In this document: one piece after another, positions 21,093-41,697 of the stretch
Position numbering within the stretch: position 1 is the first letter of the stretch
Layout of the letters: each line of letters starts with the position of its first letter
From: a virus
Virus record (IMG/VR): IMGVR_UViG_3300048597_000151
Coordinates: 1 to 42,724 of that record
DNA: 42,724 bases
Strand: one strand, 5' to 3'
Position numbers and translations under genes: made by a program
Notes under the pieces: generated by a model
Told to the model about the DNA's origin: nothing
The model's input: only the letters and a program-made list of their open reading frames with translations
Databases searched by the model: none

Positions 21093-21214
21093 ACTTCCCG
21101 GGGCGCGGACACCCGTAAGGCCCGCACCGTGTCACCCGACTCGGCAGCCGGCCCCGCCCGATGGCGGACACGCCCTGCGAAAGCACGGTCTGTTCAATCC
21201 ATCGGAGAAGGGCA

Positions 21215-22114
21215 ATGTCCACCGAAATCGAAAAACACTACGTCCAGACGTTCAAGGACAACGTCATGCTGCTCTCGCAGCAGACGAAGTCGAAGCTCGA
21301 GGGCTTCGTCACGGTCCAGCCGTGCACGGGCTTCGGCGCCGCGGTTGCCGACCAGTACGGCAGCGTGAAGGCGCGCAAGAAGACCGAGCGGCACGAGGAC
21401 ACGAAGTACAGCGACACCCCGCGCGACCGGCGCTGGCTGGTGCCGCAGGAGTACTACTCGGCCGAGCTGGTCGACAAGAGCGACATCCTGCGCATGCTGA
21501 CGGACCCGCAGTCGAACCTCGTGCGCGTGCACGTGGCCGCGATGAACCGCGCGAAGGACTCCGAGATCCTGACGAACGTGTTCGCGTCGGCGCGCCGCGG
21601 CGAGCAGCCGACGTCGGGCACCGTCGCGTACGACACCGGCAACGACATCGCGACCGACATCGATCTGGCCGGTACGCCGAGCGGCCTGTCGCCGTTCAAG
21701 CTCGTCAAGGCGAAGGGTCGCCTGATGCGCAACAAGGTCGACCTCGACAGCGAGGGCACCCCGACCTGCGTGGTGAACACGAAGGGCTGGGAAGACCTGT
21801 TCGGCCAGACGCAGTACGTCAGCGGCGACTTCAACGGCCAGAAGCCGATGGCCGAGGCGCCGACGTCGATCTACTACGGCGGCTCGAACCTCGTGCAGAT
21901 CGAGCACGACGACTTCCCGGTGAACGGCACGACGGACTACCAGTGCCCGTACTTCGTGAAGGGCGGCATCGTGCTGGGCGTCTGGCAGGACATCGAGGTC
22001 GAGGTGCAGAAGCACCCGCTGAAGGTGTCCAGCTGGGAGGTGAAGGTCACGGCCCGCTTCGCCGCCACGCGCGTCGAAGAGGCGAAGGTCGCGCGCGTCC
22101 GGATCAAGTACTGA
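21215..22114 (+). CDS. Major capsid protein
   Basis: A 299-aa capsid protein of the Phage_capsid_2-like family found with T7/BPP-1-type portals. Recognisable blocks: HYVQTFKDNVMLLSQQTKSK, then FGAAVADQYGSVKARKKTER, HEDTKYSDTPRDRRWLVPQE, ELVDKSDILRMLTDPQSNLV, AAMNRAKDSEILTNVF, and a C-terminal GIVLGVWQDIEVEVQKHPLK region ending in a beta strand. GGAGAAGGG precedes ATG 21215 at good spacing. An earlier in-frame start is rejected because the family begins near MSTEIEK. Terminator and leader hairpin bracket the gene, as expected for the most abundant virion protein. Confidence 0.9.
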   Translation: MSTEIEKHYVQTFKDNVMLLSQQTKSKLEGFVTVQPCTGFGAAVADQYGSVKARKKTERHEDTKYSDTPRDRRWLVPQEYYSAELVDKSDILRMLTDPQSNLVRVHVAAMNRAKDSEILTNVFASARRGEQPTSGTVAYDTGNDIATDIDLAGTPSGLSPFKLVKAKGRLMRNKVDLDSEGTPTCVVNTKGWEDLFGQTQYVSGDFNGQKPMAEAPTSIYYGGSNLVQIEHDDFPVNGTTDYQCPYFVKGGIVLGVWQDIEVEVQKHPLKVSSWEVKVTARFAATRVEEAKVARVRIKY

Positions 22115-22144: not shown

Positions 22145-22549
22145 ATGCCTACGACTCGCAACACCCGCGAAGCCGGCTACGTGGCGAGCGCCCGGCCGAT
22201 CGACGCGGGCGCCATCCGGCAGCTGTCCTCGGTCGTCATGGAGTTCCCGCTCGCGGGCCAGACGACCTCGGACGATCTGCGCGGCTACCTGCCGCCGGGC
22301 TTCACGCCCGCGTACCTGGGTCTCTTCCCGAGCGCGACGCTCGGCAGCTCGACGCTCGCGGTCGGCGTGCAGGGCACCGCGGGCAAGTACCGCGCGGCGG
22401 CCACGTTGACCGCGCCGTCGCTGGCGCCGGTCGTCGCGGCGGGCCGCGCGAAGCTCGCGGCGCAGGAAGAGGTGATCATCACGATCGGCGCGGCGTCGCT
22501 GCCGGGCTCGGGTTCGCTGCTCGTCGAGTTCCTCGGCTTCTACGACTGA
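22145..22549 (+). CDS. Putative capsid decoration/minor head protein
   Basis: A 134-aa protein directly after the capsid gene, with AGGAG upstream. It is beta-rich and small (IRQLSSVVMEFPLAGQTTSD, LGSSTLAVGVQGTAGKYRAA, SLLVEFLGFYD), fitting a decoration or head-stabilising protein. No family is recognised. Location before the terminator puts it in the same short transcript as the capsid protein, so it may be made in similar amounts. Confidence 0.65.
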   Translation: MPTTRNTREAGYVASARPIDAGAIRQLSSVVMEFPLAGQTTSDDLRGYLPPGFTPAYLGLFPSATLGSSTLAVGVQGTAGKYRAAATLTAPSLAPVVAAGRAKLAAQEEVIITIGAASLPGSGSLLVEFLGFYD

Positions 22550-22630: not shown

Positions 22631-25600
22631 ATGGCGGACGTAGTCTCGGGCACCTACGCCCTCCCGGCGGTGGGCGGCAAGCGCACGACGGCTTCAGGCA
22701 TGACGGGCACCGTGGGCGGGCGCGCGATCACGCACGTCTGGGGCCACGCGGGCGGCGAAATGTTCGTCCGCGACCGGCCGCGTTACACGCTCGCGCAGGA
22801 CTTCACGAAGATCGCGACGCGCAAGAGCGCCACTTGGGACGGCTCGGCGCTGACGATCACCGTGGCGAAGGGCGCGGTCGGCGGCGCGGGTCTCGTGCTC
22901 GAGTCGCTGGTCGGCGTGAACGCAGTCCGAGTCGCCGTTTCGGCGCTGAACCGGGCGGGCGGCGGGACGATCCAGAACACCGTCACGGCGACCGGCAACC
23001 AGGTGTTCGACACGGTCGGCCGGCCGATCCGGGTGTTCGTCTCCGACTTCGTGCAGATCACGAACGCCCCGTCGGCCACGGTCGGAGCGTTCCACCTCGA
23101 GACGATCAGCGACCGCCGGGTCTACGGGTATCACGACCAGAGCGTGATCGCGCCGTGGTTCCGGACGCCGACGAACCCGACGCGCGATCCGGCCGACAGC
23201 GCGCTTAAGCCGCTCGGCTGGGTAACGGGTTCGGACGGTGCGAACGGGCTGGTCGGCCCGAACACGCCCGGCACGATCCAGGTGGACTTCGAGGACCGGC
23301 CGATCGCGTACCAGTGGGTGCCGGATCCGCTTGTGCCGATCGAGGTGTGGAAGCCCGCGCGGGCCGGGGCTGCCGTGGGCGACATCGACATCCCGCAGGC
23401 CGGGTGCGCGGAGATCTGGATCGACGTGTTCGCGGCGAAGACGCTCACCGCGGGCACGTACACGGGCACGATCACGCTCTCGATCGGCGGCAACACCGAG
23501 CGCACGATCACCCTGAACGTCGTCGTGAAGAACTGGACGGCGCCCGACCGGCCGTCGCGCATCTTCTCGGGCCTGATCGAGTACACCGACTCGCACCGCT
23601 ATGTCGGCCGCCGCTATCTGGGCGAGCCGTACATGGCACCCGGCACCGACCAGTGGACGAGCGTCGCGACGCAGGAAGCGACGATGAACGCCGTCTACAA
23701 CAACACGTCGAAGCTGTTGCACGAGCATCGGATGTGCGCGTTCGATTCGATCCCCTGGCACGGCGACGAGTCGAAGCCGTTCGGCGGAACGGCGGCAGCG
23801 AAGGACTACGAGATCCAACGCGGCGACGCGCGCAACCTGATCGACGGCGCTGCGGTGCTGGGCGTGCCGACGCGGTTCTCGGCGGCGAACGGCTACGAGG
23901 GCCCCGGCATCAACACCGGCTGGGCCTGCTACTCAATCGGCACGTACGGCGGCTGGCGCAACCTGCAGGACAACACCGGGACGACTGCGGGCAGCTGGGA
24001 CGGCTTCCGTGCGATCCACCGCGCGACGCGCGACGCGAACTGCTGCGTCGCAGTGGTCGGCGCGGACGATGCAGGCACGGTCGGCGGCACGTACACGATC
24101 GCCGACATGCCGGCCGGCTGGACGGGCCTCAACGGTGCGCGGACGCTCACGCCGGTCAGCGCGTCGATCACCGGCGGCACGGCAGCGACGCCGCTGCAGG
24201 TGACGCTGAGCGGGCTGTCCGGGCCGCTGCCAGACTACGCCGAGGTCGACATCACCGGCGCGACCGGCGGCTGGTCGAGCCTGAACGGCCGCCGCTACCT
24301 GAAGCGCGTCTCGGGCTCGAACTACACGGTGCACACCTCGCCGGGGGGCGGCGACTTCGCCGGTGCGGGCTTCGGTGCCTTCCCGGGAGGCACGTTCACG
24401 GTCACGTCGACGAAGACGTTCTTCACAGGCGTCGACACCAGCGGGTACGCGAGCACCTACGAGTCGACCACCAAGGCCGGGATGTTCTGGGCAGGCGCCG
24501 CGATGAATTTCGGCGCGATTGGCTACGTGCTCACGCAGCTCGAGAACTGGTTCGGGTCGAACGCCCCGCACGTGAAGCGGTTCGTCTATCTCGGCGACGA
24601 GATCATGAACTACCGCTACAACGCGCCGCGGGCGAACTTCCTCGCGAAGCAGCTTAAGGCGGTGCGGTCGAACGCCAACATCAAGATGTTCGCGACGACC
24701 AGCCTGATCCACGCCTACTACGGCGACACGGTCAACTACGACCAGTTCGGCTTCAACACCCGCGAGCTCGAGATCGTCGCAGGCGAGGTGCAGCACGGCA
24801 CGCAGAACGCCGACGCGTTCGCCGCGTGGACCGGGCTGGGGAAGACCGTCTGGGACTACAACAGCCGGCTGCCGCAGGGCTCGCTCAACATCGGGATGCG
24901 CGGCGTCGAGCCGATGACCTGGATTCTCTCGATGGAGAAGCAGGGCATCGAGCACTGCTTCATGTACCTGATGAACCGCTACTGGGACTACGAGAACTTC
25001 CCGGCGGGCTACGGCACCGTCCGCAAGTGGCGCACGAACCGCAGCATCACGAACCTGCAGTCGGTCGGCAGCGTCACGCGCGTCACGACGAACGCGCGCG
25101 AGCACGTCTGGCAGGTCGGCGAGGTCTGCAAGTTCAACCTGCAGGCGAGCTCGCGGGTGAACGGCTGGGAGGGCCTGCACGGCAACGACAAGGCCTACAC
25201 CGTCGTCCAGCGGCTCTCGGACACTCAGTTCGACGTGAGCTTCAACTCCTCGGCCTGCGGCGCATACGTCGGGAACTCGGGCAACGAGTGCGGCTGGGTC
25301 TTCGATAGCTCGTACGTGGACCCCACCGAGCCCGGCAACCACCGCAACGTCTGGAAGGACGCCTTCACGTACGGGCACCAACTCGACGCGCCGTCGGGCT
25401 ACGAGAGCGACCTGAAGGCGTTCCTCGCGACGCACTTCCTGCCGCTCATGGGGCCGACCGCCGGCACGCGCTCGACGTCTCACTCGAACGGCTACGAGCG
25501 GCTGTACTACCCGGGCCGTGATCTGCTGTTCCCGCGCATCAACGACCCGTCACTCGACGGCCCGATCGCGTCGCGACGGATGAAGCAGATCCGGCGCGCG

Positions 25601-25801
25601 CAGTTCCTCGTCGATCTGTTCCGCGCGGCGAAGATCGCGAACGCGACTGCGGCGAACGCAGCGCTGGCGGCACGGCTGCCGCACTCCTACACGGACTGGC
25701 CCGGCATCAATGGGACCGAGTGCGGGCCCGCTACCTGGTCCGACGACGACGACCAGTACACGCAGCTCCTGAACGAGCTGTTCACGATCGTCGGAGCGTG
25801 A
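22631..25801 (+). CDS. Large GH123/DUF4091-like virion protein
   Basis: A 1056-aa protein. After an N-terminal beta region, residues about 255-300 (AEIWIDVFAAKTLTAGTYTG, TITLSIGGNTERTITLNVVV) match the Ig-like domain that precedes DUF4091/GH123 TIM barrels. A long alpha/beta region follows, with a KRFVYLGDEIMNYR segment whose adjacent Asp656-Glu657 occupy the place of the GH123 catalytic pair. Two inserted beta modules carry WxxLNG/WEGLHG and FTV/FDV patterns. Glycan cleavage at the cell surface is therefore plausible. GAGGTGA precedes the ATG. Position between head and tail-adaptor genes suggests a tailspike or head-attached fibre. A passive structural role remains possible. Confidence 0.6.
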   Translation: MADVVSGTYALPAVGGKRTTASGMTGTVGGRAITHVWGHAGGEMFVRDRPRYTLAQDFTKIATRKSATWDGSALTITVAKGAVGGAGLVLESLVGVNAVRVAVSALNRAGGGTIQNTVTATGNQVFDTVGRPIRVFVSDFVQITNAPSATVGAFHLETISDRRVYGYHDQSVIAPWFRTPTNPTRDPADSALKPLGWVTGSDGANGLVGPNTPGTIQVDFEDRPIAYQWVPDPLVPIEVWKPARAGAAVGDIDIPQAGCAEIWIDVFAAKTLTAGTYTGTITLSIGGNTERTITLNVVVKNWTAPDRPSRIFSGLIEYTDSHRYVGRRYLGEPYMAPGTDQWTSVATQEATMNAVYNNTSKLLHEHRMCAFDSIPWHGDESKPFGGTAAAKDYEIQRGDARNLIDGAAVLGVPTRFSAANGYEGPGINTGWACYSIGTYGGWRNLQDNTGTTAGSWDGFRAIHRATRDANCCVAVVGADDAGTVGGTYTIADMPAGWTGLNGARTLTPVSASITGGTAATPLQVTLSGLSGPLPDYAEVDITGATGGWSSLNGRRYLKRVSGSNYTVHTSPGGGDFAGAGFGAFPGGTFTVTSTKTFFTGVDTSGYASTYESTTKAGMFWAGAAMNFGAIGYVLTQLENWFGSNAPHVKRFVYLGDEIMNYRYNAPRANFLAKQLKAVRSNANIKMFATTSLIHAYYGDTVNYDQFGFNTRELEIVAGEVQHGTQNADAFAAWTGLGKTVWDYNSRLPQGSLNIGMRGVEPMTWILSMEKQGIEHCFMYLMNRYWDYENFPAGYGTVRKWRTNRSITNLQSVGSVTRVTTNAREHVWQVGEVCKFNLQASSRVNGWEGLHGNDKAYTVVQRLSDTQFDVSFNSSACGAYVGNSGNECGWVFDSSYVDPTEPGNHRNVWKDAFTYGHQLDAPSGYESDLKAFLATHFLPLMGPTAGTRSTSHSNGYERLYYPGRDLLFPRINDPSLDGPIASRRMKQIRRAQFLVDLFRAAKIANATAANAALAARLPHSYTDWPGINGTECGPATWSDDDDQYTQLLNELFTIVGA

Positions 25802-25805
25802 TGCC

Positions 25806-28730
25806 ATGACCGTATTCGCACGGGATACCTTCACCGCGACCGACGGCACGCTGCTCGGCGCCCGCACAGCGGAAGCCGGCGGGCAGTGGACGAACTTCTC
25901 CTGGGGCTCCGGTAGCACCACCCCGCCGATCAACGGGGGCCGCGCCGAGACCGCCGCGAACACCCGCGAGGTCTACCTGCCGACGCCCGCGCCGGGCGCG
26001 GACTACACGGTCGAGTTCGACATCCATTACACGGCCGACGACGACACGAGCCTGAACCCGGACGCGGTGCAGGTCTGGCTGCGCTCCGACACCACCGTAA
26101 AGACGGGGTACTACCTCGAGCTCGGCTGGTACCTGACGTCTCGCATCGGCAAGGCGATCGCCGGCACGACGTCGACCTCGAACACCTACTACGCGAGCCC
26201 GCGCTTCGCGGCCGGCCAGACGGTGCGCGTGAGGATCACGGTGGCGACCGTGGGCAGCGAGGTGCAGATCCGGGTGTACTACGACGGCGTGCTGCGGCAG
26301 TCGTTCAATGACACGGCAGCGGACCGGGTCACGGCGGCCGGCTACGTGGGCGTGCACCTGCGCCGCTTCGGCTCGACGAACAAGCGTATCGACAACCTGA
26401 TCGCCTACACGGGCGTGCTGCCGTCGATCAGCGACGCGGGCGACGAGACGTTCTACAACAACGAGCCCGGCGTCGCCGTGGCCGGCGCGGGCTTCAAGGC
26501 CGCGCAGGGCACTCAGGGGCTGGTCGTCATCAGCCCGTCGGCCACGGACCCGCTGGCCGCCGGCTACCAGGCGCAGACGGTCCAGGGCTGGACTGACACG
26601 CAGGTGACGATCCGCACGGTTCGCGGGTCGATGTCGACCGGCACGAACCTGTACCTGTACGTGCGCAACGACGACGGCAACTGGTCGGCGCCGTGGACGG
26701 TGCAGTTCCAAGCCGATCCGCTGTCGCCGACGATCTTCGGCGTGGTCGGCGCGCAGCCGGGCAAGATCCGGTTCGGCCAGACGTTCACCGTCGATGGGAT
26801 CGCGTTCGGGCCATCGCAGGGCACGGGCGGCGTCACCTACGAAGGCGTCGCGCAGACGCCGATCGTGGGATGGGCGGACACGCTGATCACGGCGACGGCG
26901 CAGTGGTCCGGGCTGCTCGGCCAGCAGAACACGCTGACGGTCACCGTGAACGGCGGCGGCACGGCGAGTCTCGAGGTCGAGCCCGAGGTCCCGGCCGGTG
27001 GTGCGTGGGTGACGCTGACGGACCCGCTGGCGGACGCCGCGGCGCGAATCCCGCTGTCGGGCGGGTCGATGGCGGTCGGCGGACAGGTCGCCGTGTACGG
27101 CATCACTGGCGGCGGCACGGTCACGCCGATGCCGGATGGGTCCGCGATCCTCGATGCGACCGTGACCTCGTTCAAGGCGCGGTACTGCACGCCTGCGGGC
27201 GTGTGGGGTGCCGAGGGCACGATCACGATCGGCGCGATCGCGGGCGACACGACGGCTCCGACGGTGCCGACCGGCGTTGCGGCCGTGGCAGACAGCGAGA
27301 CCGCCGTCACCGTTTCGTGGAGTGCGTCGGCGGACGCCGGCAGCGGCGTGAAGGGCTACTACGTGTTCCGCGGCGGCGTGAAGGTTTCGCCGCTGGTGAC
27401 CGGCACGAGCTGGCAGGACACCGGCCGCGCGGCGTGGACGCAGTACGCGTACTCGGTCTCGGCCGTCGACAATGCGGACAACGAGTCGGCGGCGTCGGCT
27501 TCGGTGACGGTGCGCACCCGCGACGACACCGCGCCGAGCGTGCCGGGGAACGTGGTCGCGACTCCGGGCGGGACGACCGTCACGATCACCTGGAACTCGT
27601 CGACCGATGCGGCCTCTGGGCTGGCGGGCTACCGCGTCTTCCGAAACGGCGTGGCGATGTCCGGCGCGCTGGTGACGGGCACCAGCTACACCGACACGAG
27701 CCCGCAGCCGTCGGTTTCGTACACGTACACTGTGCGGGCGGTCGACGTCGCGGGCAACGAGTCGGCGGCCGGAACGTCGAACACGATCACCACCGGCGGG
27801 GACACCACCGCACCGTCGGTCCCGGCGACGCTCAGCGTGGCGCAATCGGGTGCGGGCACGTTCACGCTGCAGTGGCCGGCCAGCACCGACACGGGCAGCG
27901 GGATCCGCGGCTATCACGTCTACCGCAACGGCACGAAGCTCACGACGCTGCCGATCGCGGCGCTCACGTACGCGGACAGCACCCCTTCGACCGGCGTCGA
28001 GTACACCTACGAGGTCTCGGCGGTCGACCTGGCGGACAACGAGAGCGCGAAGCGCGCGGCGTTGCCGGTGATGCTGACGGGGTCGGCGACCGGACCGGGC
28101 ACGGGGCCGGTTCCCGGGCCGATCGACCGCGTCTCGAAGGTCTCGATCTGCAACATCGCGCTCGTGAAGCTCGGCGCGTCGACGATCGACTCGCTGACCG
28201 AGGACTCGAAGGCAGCACGGGCGCTGAGCACGATCTTCGATCGCATCCGCGACGCCGAGCTCGCACGGCACTTCTGGAACTTCGCCAAGGCACGGCGGAA
28301 GCTGGCCGAGGCGATCAGCGACGAGCCGAACGGTCCGTTCTCGCACCGCTACGCGCTGCCAACGGACTGGCTGACGACGATCTATGTCGGCAACCTGCCG
28401 TCGTCGGTGAACTTGGCGGACTTCCGCGGCTACGACCCGGGTGACTGGTCGCACGAGGGGCCGTTCATCCTGACGAACACGGCGCCCCCGGCCGACCTGT
28501 ACTACATCCGCCGCATCACCGACCCGACGAGGTACCACGCGCTGTTCGTCGAAGCGCTGGCGTGCCGGCTCGCGATGGAGGTGGCCGACGCGCTGACGAA
28601 CTCGACCGCGCGCTGGCAGAAGGTCGCGACCGAGTACCGCGCGGCGATCGCCGAGGCGCGCCGTGTGAACGCCATCCAGAACCCCGCGCAGCAGCCGCAG
28701 GACGGGGACTGGATGGGATCGAGGTTCTGA
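25806..28730 (+). CDS. Fusion: lectin/FN3 domains with tail tubular protein A
   Basis: A 974-aa protein. Residues 774-974 are a whole T7 gp11-like tail tubular protein A (SKVSICNIALVKLGASTIDS, FDRIRDAELARHFWNFAKAR, RYALPTDW, LFVEALACRLAMEVADALT), the adaptor ring between portal and tail nozzle. Ahead of it lie a concanavalin-like domain (about 1-205; TVEFDIHYTADDD, KRIDNLIAYTG), beta domains (about 206-480), three FN3 domains (481-572, 573-665, 666-760; each with APxVP and DNADNESAA-like ends), and a Gly/Pro linker (GSATGPGTGPVPGP). Free-standing relatives are about 200 aa, so the N-terminal 770 residues are an added surface array, twelve copies of which should ring the tail collar. There is no frameshift between parts. 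Confidence 0.8.
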   Translation: MTVFARDTFTATDGTLLGARTAEAGGQWTNFSWGSGSTTPPINGGRAETAANTREVYLPTPAPGADYTVEFDIHYTADDDTSLNPDAVQVWLRSDTTVKTGYYLELGWYLTSRIGKAIAGTTSTSNTYYASPRFAAGQTVRVRITVATVGSEVQIRVYYDGVLRQSFNDTAADRVTAAGYVGVHLRRFGSTNKRIDNLIAYTGVLPSISDAGDETFYNNEPGVAVAGAGFKAAQGTQGLVVISPSATDPLAAGYQAQTVQGWTDTQVTIRTVRGSMSTGTNLYLYVRNDDGNWSAPWTVQFQADPLSPTIFGVVGAQPGKIRFGQTFTVDGIAFGPSQGTGGVTYEGVAQTPIVGWADTLITATAQWSGLLGQQNTLTVTVNGGGTASLEVEPEVPAGGAWVTLTDPLADAAARIPLSGGSMAVGGQVAVYGITGGGTVTPMPDGSAILDATVTSFKARYCTPAGVWGAEGTITIGAIAGDTTAPTVPTGVAAVADSETAVTVSWSASADAGSGVKGYYVFRGGVKVSPLVTGTSWQDTGRAAWTQYAYSVSAVDNADNESAASASVTVRTRDDTAPSVPGNVVATPGGTTVTITWNSSTDAASGLAGYRVFRNGVAMSGALVTGTSYTDTSPQPSVSYTYTVRAVDVAGNESAAGTSNTITTGGDTTAPSVPATLSVAQSGAGTFTLQWPASTDTGSGIRGYHVYRNGTKLTTLPIAALTYADSTPSTGVEYTYEVSAVDLADNESAKRAALPVMLTGSATGPGTGPVPGPIDRVSKVSICNIALVKLGASTIDSLTEDSKAARALSTIFDRIRDAELARHFWNFAKARRKLAEAISDEPNGPFSHRYALPTDWLTTIYVGNLPSSVNLADFRGYDPGDWSHEGPFILTNTAPPADLYYIRRITDPTRYHALFVEALACRLAMEVADALTNSTARWQKVATEYRAAIAEARRVNAIQNPAQQPQDGDWMGSRF

Positions 28731-38496: not shown

Positions 38497-40305
38497 ATGA
38501 CCGTCCCCAGCACGCAGAGCCGAATCCAGTACGCGGGCGACGGCGCGACGTCGCAATTTGACTTCCCGTTCCCGTTCGTGAACCGGGAGGACGTCAAGGT
38601 CCTCCGACGGGCGGCTGACGGGACCGAATCGCCGCTGACGCTGGACACCACGTACACGGTCACCGTGCCCGGAGGCGGAACGGGCGGTCGCGTCACCACG
38701 GCCGAGGTGCTGCCGGCCGGCGCCACGCTGACGATCTACCGCGATCCGGAGCCGGTGCAGGAGACCGACTTTCGCGAGAACGACCGGTTCTTCGCGGAGA
38801 CGCTGGAGAGCGCACTCGACTACCTGACCATGATCGCGCAGCGCAACCGCGAGCTCGGCGCGCGCAGCCTGCGGCTTCGCGAGTCCGACCCGGCGACCGG
38901 CGGCCAGTTCGACGCCCGCGCGAATCGCATCAGTTCGCTCGCGAGCGCGGTAGCGGACAGCGATGCCGTGACGCTCGCCCAGCTGAAGGCGTTCACCGCA
39001 CAGCTGGGCAACCCCGGCTCGAACGTGCCGCCGAACCAGCTGCAGCAGATCACCGACGCAGTCGTCGCGAGCGCGCAGCTGACCGGTCTTTTCTCGCCGC
39101 TGAATGCGTCGGTCGGCAATCTAACGACGAGGATCACGGCGGCCGAAGGGCAGATCGTGGCGCTCTCGCAGATCGCCGGTGACCCGAACAACTTCCTGAC
39201 GCTGATCAGCACGGAGACCGCGAACCGGATCGCCGGTGACGGTGCGCTCGCGTCCACGATTTCAAAGCTTGGTGCTCTGTCCGGCGACGGGCTGGCGTTC
39301 ATCCTCAACGTCGACACCGCGAAGATCAGCGCGTCCGAATCGCTCGCGCAGCGCCTATCGGGGATCGCCGCGCGGCAGGATTCGGCCGACGCTGCAGTGC
39401 TCAGCGAAGCGTCGGCGCGTGCCACCGCAGACAGTGCCCTTTCGCAGTCGATCACGACGCTCCAGACGAACCTGAGCGGCCAGACGACCACGCTGCAGGT
39501 GCTGGCCTCGACCGTCGACGGGGTGCAGGCCAAGTACACCGTCAAGATCGACAACAATGGGTACGTCACCGGATACGGGCTGATCTCGTCGGCGAACAAC
39601 GGCGTGCCGACGTCCCAGTTCACCGTGCTGGCCGACCGGTTCGCGGTGGTGCTGCCGGGGGCCACGCCGCAGGTGCCGTTCGTCGCCGGCAACATCAACG
39701 GGTCGCCAGGCGTCGGCATCAACGGTTCGCTCATCGTCGACGGCACGATCGTGGCGCGGCATTTGGCGGCCAACAGCATCTCGGCGTCCGCCATCCAGGT
39801 GGGCACGATCACCGCCGACCGGCTCGTGCTGAACGGCATCACGACCGATCGAATCGCGTCGAACGCGATCACGAACGCGAACGTCTCGCAGCTGCAGAAC
39901 TTCACGAGCCTGCCGTACTGGGGCGGCGGCGCGTTCACCGCGATGCCCTACATTTGCGAGGTGTCGCTGACGACGACCGGCGGAAACGTGCTGCTGATCG
40001 GTACCGCGGACGTCGAAGTGCTCAGCAACCTGACCACGCAGCAGGCGTCGGCGGTGCTGCAACTCGTGAAGGTGTCCGGCACGCCGAACGGCTACGACGT
40101 GGCGCGCATGTCCGTTCTGTCGACCACGCAGATCGGGCACGCGAACTCGTACAACTCCGGGCGGATGTCGCTCGTCTGGATGGTCACCGGGCTGCCAGCC
40201 GGCACGCATACGTTCCGGCTCGGCGCGTACAAGGACTTCGACAGCGCGAGCCTGGTGTGCAGTACGAATTATCGGAGTCTGGTGGCGCAGGAGTTCAAGC
40301 GGTGA
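38497..40305 (+). CDS. Chimeric tail fibre
   Basis: A 602-aa receptor-binding candidate. Residues 1-150 are the T7-type fibre anchor that joins the tail (SRIQYAGDGATSQFDFPFPF, VNREDVKVLRR, DPEPVQETDFRENDRFFAET, LESALDYLTMIAQRN). A coiled-coil region follows (about 160-330). Residues about 325-455 match the C-terminal region of siphovirus tip attachment protein J (TLQVLASTVDGVQAKYTVKI, SQFTVLADRFAVVLP, FVAGNINGSPGVGINGSLIV, GTIVARHLAANSISASAIQV). A beta-rich C-terminal domain, the likely tip, ends at AQEFKR. The gene thus joins a podovirus anchor to lambda-type tip parts. No ribosome site precedes the ATG, which sits at the predicted start of transcription. Confidence 0.88.
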   Translation: MTVPSTQSRIQYAGDGATSQFDFPFPFVNREDVKVLRRAADGTESPLTLDTTYTVTVPGGGTGGRVTTAEVLPAGATLTIYRDPEPVQETDFRENDRFFAETLESALDYLTMIAQRNRELGARSLRLRESDPATGGQFDARANRISSLASAVADSDAVTLAQLKAFTAQLGNPGSNVPPNQLQQITDAVVASAQLTGLFSPLNASVGNLTTRITAAEGQIVALSQIAGDPNNFLTLISTETANRIAGDGALASTISKLGALSGDGLAFILNVDTAKISASESLAQRLSGIAARQDSADAAVLSEASARATADSALSQSITTLQTNLSGQTTTLQVLASTVDGVQAKYTVKIDNNGYVTGYGLISSANNGVPTSQFTVLADRFAVVLPGATPQVPFVAGNINGSPGVGINGSLIVDGTIVARHLAANSISASAIQVGTITADRLVLNGITTDRIASNAITNANVSQLQNFTSLPYWGGGAFTAMPYICEVSLTTTGGNVLLIGTADVEVLSNLTTQQASAVLQLVKVSGTPNGYDVARMSVLSTTQIGHANSYNSGRMSLVWMVTGLPAGTHTFRLGAYKDFDSASLVCSTNYRSLVAQEFKR

Positions 40306-41184: not shown

Positions 41185-41697
41185 ATGCTGTTCCTGTCGG
41201 CGGGCCACGACCCCCGCGCACCGGGCGTCGTGTGGAAGGGCGTGCGCGAGCACGATCTCGCCGTCGAGTGGGTGCGCGAGCTGGCGCGCCTGATCCCCGC
41301 CGCCAAGGTCGTGCCCGTCACGACGCTCGGCGCGCGAATCCGGTGGATCAACGCCGACGCGCGGCCGGCGGACCTCGCCGTCGAGATCCACATGAACGGC
41401 GCCGCGAACCCGGCGGCGCGCGGATCCGAGGCGCTGTACAACCCGGGCTCGACGCGCGGCGAGCGCATCGCGGCGGGCCTGCAGGCTGCCCAGGCGGCGC
41501 ACTTCGCGCCGTCGCGCGGCCACAAGGCCGGGACACTGCGCATGGAACTGAACGGCCCGCCGCTGGCGTTCCTCGACGACACGGTCTGCACGGCCGTGAT
41601 TCTCGAACCGGAGTTCATCTTCCACCACGAGAGCATCCGCGACAGGCGCGACGCGTGCTGCGCCGACCTCGCGCGCGTGCTGAGGGCGTACGCATGA
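41185..41697 (+). CDS. N-acetylmuramoyl-L-alanine amidase endolysin
   Basis: A 170-aa Amidase_3-type endolysin that should cut the amide bond between peptidoglycan glycan and peptide. Zinc ligands and catalytic residues are visible: His8 (SAGHDP), Glu22 (GVREHDLA), His69 (AVEIHMNGAAN) and Glu141 (TAVILEPEFI). There is no signal peptide, so release needs a holin. The single catalytic domain lacks a separate cell-wall-binding domain, usual for phages of Gram-negative hosts. ATG follows the previous gene by 13 nt. Confidence 0.9.
   Translation: MLFLSAGHDPRAPGVVWKGVREHDLAVEWVRELARLIPAAKVVPVTTLGARIRWINADARPADLAVEIHMNGAANPAARGSEALYNPGSTRGERIAAGLQAAQAAHFAPSRGHKAGTLRMELNGPPLAFLDDTVCTAVILEPEFIFHHESIRDRRDACCADLARVLRAYA

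What the first reader, a model, noticed from the sequence alone, without database searches (positions are those of the whole stretch)
25806..28730. Tail tubular protein A fused to lectin-like and three FN3 domains
The adaptor protein, normally about 200 aa, ends a 974-aa protein whose first 770 residues are carbohydrate-binding and Ig-like modules on a Gly/Pro linker. A dodecameric collar would show twelve such arms near the portal. Fusing Ig-like display domains to the adaptor is unusual; they are more often on capsid or fibre proteins.
Basis: partly seen in the sequence, partly recalled or inferred. Interest (0 to 1): 0.6.

Follow-up and report, generated by a model that had tools for sequence, protein, structure and literature searches.

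The report
Phage tail adaptor with fused arms
A short-tailed virus of bacteria carries the ring protein joining its head to its tail fused in one gene to a long string of sticky, antibody-like modules, a rare arrangement that has one little-noticed relative, built in the opposite order, in cholera-bacterium phages.

Summary
Window 25806-28730 (+) encodes one 974-aa protein: about 757 residues of beta-rich modules, including three clear FN3 domains, a Gly/Pro linker, then a complete podophage adaptor (PHROG 394, residues 777-973; the AlphaFold model matches solved adaptors, including T7 gp11 and KP32 TTPA). It is not an assembly error. An independent virus (L001, 74% identical adaptor) has the same fusion with different arms: two I-set Ig domains instead of three FN3.

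Fusion is rare in this adaptor family. About 130 sampled adaptor frames are nearly all stand-alone, around 200 aa. It is not unprecedented. The Vibrio phages VP2, VP5, QH, phiVC8 and K292 (PHROG 9239) carry the reverse order, adaptor first and Ig domains after, and a published 74.1-kDa virion band was assigned to the phiVC8 protein. Several other long adaptor-fold proteins appear in BFVD.

No start codon lies near residue 774; the ATG at 756 lacks a ribosome site.

Best reading: a Hoc-like architecture in which a conserved C-terminal anchor (the adaptor ring) displays up to 12 exchangeable N-terminal arms for weak surface or glycan binding, beside a T7-type fibre. Binding is inferred. "Lectin-like" is only weakly supported. 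New variant of a known kind.

The parts
25793..25796 (+). Shine-Dalgarno-like GGAG before the fusion gene, next to the stop codon (25799-25801) of the upstream gene
25806..28730 (+). 974-aa fusion gene: N-terminal display arms plus C-terminal tail adaptor
   Evidence: same architecture in L001 3006-5603
25806..26417 (+). residues 1-204: beta-rich N-terminal domain, lectin-like by appearance only; weakly related to the N-terminus of a 347-aa protein downstream of a capsid-like protein in genome G005
26418..26990 (+). residues 205-395: probably two TIG/IPT-like beta domains (by eye; no database match)
   Evidence: sequence pattern; no significant Pfam match
26991..27257 (+). residues 396-484: further domain, weakly similar (E 0.01 in a two-sequence comparison) to the same place in L001
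27258..28076 (+). residues 485-757: three FN3 domains in tandem (about 487-568, 575-662, 667-752)
28077..28130 (+). Gly/Pro linker, predicted disordered (pLDDT < 50)
28131..28730 (+). residues 776-974: complete podophage tail adaptor (PHROG 394; T7 gp11/TTPA fold)
28732..30969 (+). nozzle (tail tubular protein B) gene directly downstream, the usual neighbour of an adaptor gene
   Evidence: PHROG 376 E 8e-196; 76% identical in L001
38497..40305 (+). T7-type tail fibre gene; the usual fibre is present as well as the arms
   Evidence: Phage_T7_tail E 1.2e-13

Best explanation
The protein is a working tail adaptor that carries its own display arms. The C-terminal 199 residues fold as an adaptor and, by homology, form the dodecameric ring between portal and nozzle. 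The first roughly 757 residues are a string of beta-sandwich modules on a flexible Gly/Pro linker, so each of up to 12 subunits would project one arm outward beside the tail. The arms most likely act as accessory adhesins that make weak, multivalent contacts with cell-surface or environmental glycans, in addition to the T7-type tail fibre, much as Hoc does on the T4 head. Shown: one open frame, intact adaptor fold, FN3 domains, conserved fusion with exchanged arms in a second virus. Inferred: copy number, outward orientation, binding and target.
For: Adaptor and FN3 domains in one ATG-started frame with a GGAG site. Adaptor model has a helix bundle and beta dock like those reported for T7 gp11 and matches solved adaptors. 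L001 repeats the fusion with I-set Ig domains and a PVQPPVPG linker, while flanking virion genes are 56-90% identical and the arms give no tblastn match: conserved anchor, exchangeable cargo. Reverse-order adaptor-Ig fusions exist in Vibrio phages, with the phiVC8 protein assigned to a virion band of full size (PMC4802629). Hoc has the same logic: conserved C-terminal anchor plus variable Ig string (PMC10385173). Tail tubular proteins can act as adsorption ligands in another podophage (PMC7241545). Relatives carry separate 419-564 aa genes, at least two matching a phage tail-protein family, just before the adaptor gene, a plausible source of the fusion.
Against: No proteomics or structure for this virus. 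The N-terminal 484 residues have no significant family match and a poor model. The position of the adaptor N-terminus in the assembled ring was not measured here, so outward projection is assumed. The arms could be cleaved off, or could serve stability rather than binding.
Confidence: 0.68

Rival explanations
1. The adaptor is also, or only, made separately by internal initiation at ATG 28071 (residue 756) or released from the precursor by proteolysis in the linker, so that few or no arms remain on the virion ring.
For: An in-frame ATG lies 20 codons before the adaptor and the linker is predicted disordered. L001 has a GTG exactly at the native adaptor start. Stand-alone adaptors of about 200 aa are the family norm.
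Against: No Shine-Dalgarno before ATG 756; no start codon at the native position in the window (GTC); the start is not conserved between the two viruses. The comparable phiVC8 fusion was reported in virions at its full predicted mass.
Confidence: 0.15
2. The arms are structural: a collar or whisker-like sleeve that guards the portal vertex, stabilises the head-tail joint or organises the tail fibres, with no ligand.
For: Beta-sandwich strings are common in virion decoration; the adaptor fibre-dock region is predicted intact, so arms and fibres would sit close together.
Against: Arms are replaced wholesale between two viruses whose tail genes remain 74-90% identical, as expected of environment-facing modules rather than of a fixed structural contact.
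Confidence: 0.15
3. The fusion is a sequencing or frame artefact of a GC-rich metagenomic contig.
For: GC 70% gives long chance frames; the 918-aa antisense ORF here and a 476-aa frame in G598 look like examples.
Against: FN3 domains and adaptor lie in the same frame, the codon third-position GC stays high throughout, and an independent contig repeats the fusion.
Confidence: 0.02

Closest known systems
Enhodamvirus tail tubular protein (PHROG 9239: Vibrio phages VP2, VP5, QH, phiVC8 ORF14; also Vibrio phage K292)
   Same: Same adaptor family fused in one gene to several Ig-type domains, in the slot before the next tail gene; the phiVC8 product was assigned to a 74.1-kDa virion band
   Different: Adaptor at the N-terminus, Ig and Gly-rich domains after it; only 25% identity in the adaptor; I-set Ig instead of FN3
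T4 Hoc head decoration protein
   Same: Conserved C-terminal anchor with a variable string of Ig-like domains in front (PMC10385173)
   Different: Anchors on capsid hexamers in 155 copies, not on the tail adaptor ring; no sequence relation found in the anchor
Stand-alone adaptors: BcepC6B gp11, epsilon15 gp11, Carin 1 connector (8ck1), T7 gp11
   Same: Same adaptor domain and gene order capsid-adaptor-nozzle
   Different: About 190-220 aa, no arms
SU10 nozzle with Ig-like domains
   Same: Ig-like modules built into a podophage tail-tube protein (PMC9509320)
   Different: On the nozzle, not the adaptor; arranged around the tail tip

Membership tests
PHROG 394 / podophage tail adaptor (tail tubular protein A) | Sequence match over the whole domain | tested here: met
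   777-973 against profile 3-188 of 190, E 8.9e-50
PHROG 394 / podophage tail adaptor (tail tubular protein A) | Adaptor fold: helix bundle, beta fibre dock, C-terminal helix | tested here: met
   AF2 pLDDT 87; Foldseek 8ck1 TM 0.82, T7 gp11 about 0.6, KP32 TTPA about 0.54
PHROG 394 / podophage tail adaptor (tail tubular protein A) | Gene between capsid genes and nozzle gene | tested here: met
   MCP 21161-22114, nozzle 28732-30969; BcepC6B synteny
PHROG 394 / podophage tail adaptor (tail tubular protein A) | Dodecameric ring on the portal | not testable with these tools
   Known for T7 (PMC6702177); not measured here
PHROG 9239 adaptor-Ig fusion (Enhodamvirus) | Adaptor domain N-terminal, Ig domains C-terminal, Gly-rich end | tested here: not met
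   Order reversed in the window and L001; it works like this family but is not a member
FN3 domain proteins | Match above the curated FN3 cut-off | tested here: met
   PF00041 44.4 bits against cut-off 25, three stretches
Lectin / concanavalin-like domain | Significant match or confident fold for residues 1-204 | tested here: inconclusive
   No Pfam or PDB sequence match; model pLDDT mostly below 75
Hoc decoration protein | Capsid-binding C-terminal domain | tested here: not met
   C-terminal domain is a tail adaptor; similar architecture only

The most novel reading that the evidence does not exclude
The podophage adaptor ring is a general plug-in display platform: unrelated phages have independently fused exchangeable adhesin arms to either end of it, and this virus with L001 is the first case described with long N-terminal arms and a C-terminal adaptor, forming a 12-arm collar at the tail base that works beside the fibres.
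Probability: 0.45. Interest if true: 0.55.

Novelty: new variant of a known kind. Interest (0 to 1): 0.42.

Why it matters
It would add the tail adaptor to the places where phages mount exchangeable Ig-like or FN3 display domains, give a 12-fold scaffold at a defined site near the host surface, and explain a little-noticed class of long 'tail tubular proteins'. The existing Vibrio phages VP5 and QH offer a cultured system, in the reverse order, for testing what such arms do.

Tried and rejected
Internal adaptor start: no start codon or ribosome site at the native position. Frame artefact: excluded by L001. Search for close relatives by whole protein or N-terminal domain in viral contigs: none. 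Genome scan with alignment A1 failed for lack of conserved columns; A3 gave two loci in bacterial genomes, both unfused. Long open frames of 476 and 302 aa in genomes G598 and G262 proved to be chance reading upstream of normal ATG starts. Full-length AlphaFold model too poor for residues 1-485, so it was not used for a fold search. Paper searches found no description of an N-terminal adaptor fusion in the held library.

Full report
What is there. The open frame at 25806-28730 (+) begins with ATG, is preceded by GGAG nine bases upstream, and starts four bases after the stop of the upstream gene. The 974-aa product contains three FN3 domains (E 1.9e-11 for PF00041) and, at 777-973, a full match to PHROG 394, tail protein (E 8.9e-50). 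Gene order is major capsid protein (21161-22114), a 134-aa protein at 22145-22549 in the place of the cement protein of BcepC6B-like phages, a 1056-aa protein, the fusion, then the nozzle (PHROG 376, E 8e-196), as in BcepC6B and epsilon15 apart from the 1056-aa gene and the arms.

The adaptor is intact. An AlphaFold model of the last 200 residues from 29 sequences has pLDDT 87 and matches the Carin 1 connector (8ck1, TM 0.82), the LME-1 tail (9efk), T7 gp11 and KP32 tail tubular protein A. The beta part that forms the fibre dock in T7 (PMC6702177) is present, and the virus also encodes a T7-type tail fibre at 38497-40305, so the arms come on top of the usual fibre.

The fusion is conserved and modular. 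L001, an independent 42.8-kb viral contig, encodes a protein of about 865 aa with the same layout. Its adaptor is 74% identical, its linker is again Pro/Gly-rich, but its arms carry two I-set Ig domains in place of the three FN3 domains. Around it the capsid protein is 68%, nozzle 76% and the other tail and internal virion genes 75-90% identical, while the arms and the 1056-aa neighbour have no tblastn counterpart. This is the pattern of a conserved anchor with exchanged cargo.

How rare is it? Of about 130 adaptor-bearing frames collected from viral contigs, phage genomes and bacterial genomes (a few are duplicates), the median frame is 202 aa; apart from the window, L001 and the Vibrio phages QH, phiVC8 and JSF33 none exceeds 275 aa. 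In 399 genomes of one phylum 19 matches had stop-to-stop frames of 177-302 aa. The apparent exceptions in G598 (476) and G262 (302) have normal ATG starts and chance upstream frames.

Precedent. PHROG 9239 turned out to have an adaptor at positions 1-190 followed by Ig-type domains: in the genome scan most of its matches fell on ordinary adaptors. Its members are the 741-743 aa tail tubular proteins of Vibrio phages such as VP2, VP5, QH and phiVC8, with Ig_3/I-set domains and a Gly-rich end; the 750-aa protein of Vibrio phage K292 is alike. The phiVC8 authors assigned a 74.1-kDa virion band to this ORF by mass spectrometry and noted its Ig domain, but described it only as a tail protein (PMC4802629). 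In the BFVD fold library, eight of the 22 best adaptor-fold matches are 492-1139 aa long, among them VP2, JSF9 and a protein named for a chitin-binding domain; which end the adaptor occupies in the unnamed ones was not determined. So adaptor-display fusions recur; what is new here is the reverse order, with long N-terminal arms.

Internal start. The aligned native start residue is V776, codon GTC. In-frame starts nearby are TTG 753, GTG 755 and ATG 756 without a Shine-Dalgarno, and GTG 787 inside the first helix. L001 has a GTG at the native position, so a separate adaptor is not excluded there, but the feature is not shared.

Mechanism. The closest working analogue is T4 Hoc: a conserved C-terminal anchor and a variable Ig string (PMC10385173). 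Here the anchor would be the 12-fold adaptor ring. [quoted passage not shown] Copy number, direction and target are inferred. Separate genes of 419-564 aa lie just before the adaptor gene in several relatives, two of them matching a phage tail-protein family, which suggests how the fusion could have arisen: loss of the boundary between a cargo gene and the adaptor gene.

Weak points. Residues 1-484 have no significant family match and a poor model; 'lectin-like' rests on appearance and one weak relative.

Noticed in passing
window 22631-25801 (+): 1056-aa protein directly before the fusion has weak matches to the N-terminal domain of glycoside hydrolase family 123 (E 0.025-0.055); in L001 the same slot holds an unrelated 561-aa protein. 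Possibly a virion-borne polysaccharide-degrading enzyme.
   Followed up: partly
window 28732-30969 (+), residues 215-238: The nozzle protein has a CBM_5_12 (chitin-binding type) match, E 1.3e-4, just below the curated cut-off.
   Followed up: no
L089 3273-4964, L090 3286-4980, L096 4054-5379, L105 3482-4741: Separate 419-564 aa proteins lie in the slot between capsid genes and a stand-alone adaptor gene; L089 and L090 match PHROG 5939 (tail protein).
   Followed up: partly
window 25782-28538 (-): A 918-aa antisense open frame covers the fusion gene; probably a high-GC shadow frame, not a gene.
   Followed up: no
L134 1498-2541: A 347-aa protein downstream of a capsid-like protein in genome G005 shares the N-terminal domain of the fusion (31% identity).
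   Followed up: partly
window 41185-41697 (+): N-acetylmuramoyl-L-alanine amidase, probable endolysin (PF01520 E 7.3e-12).
   Followed up: no
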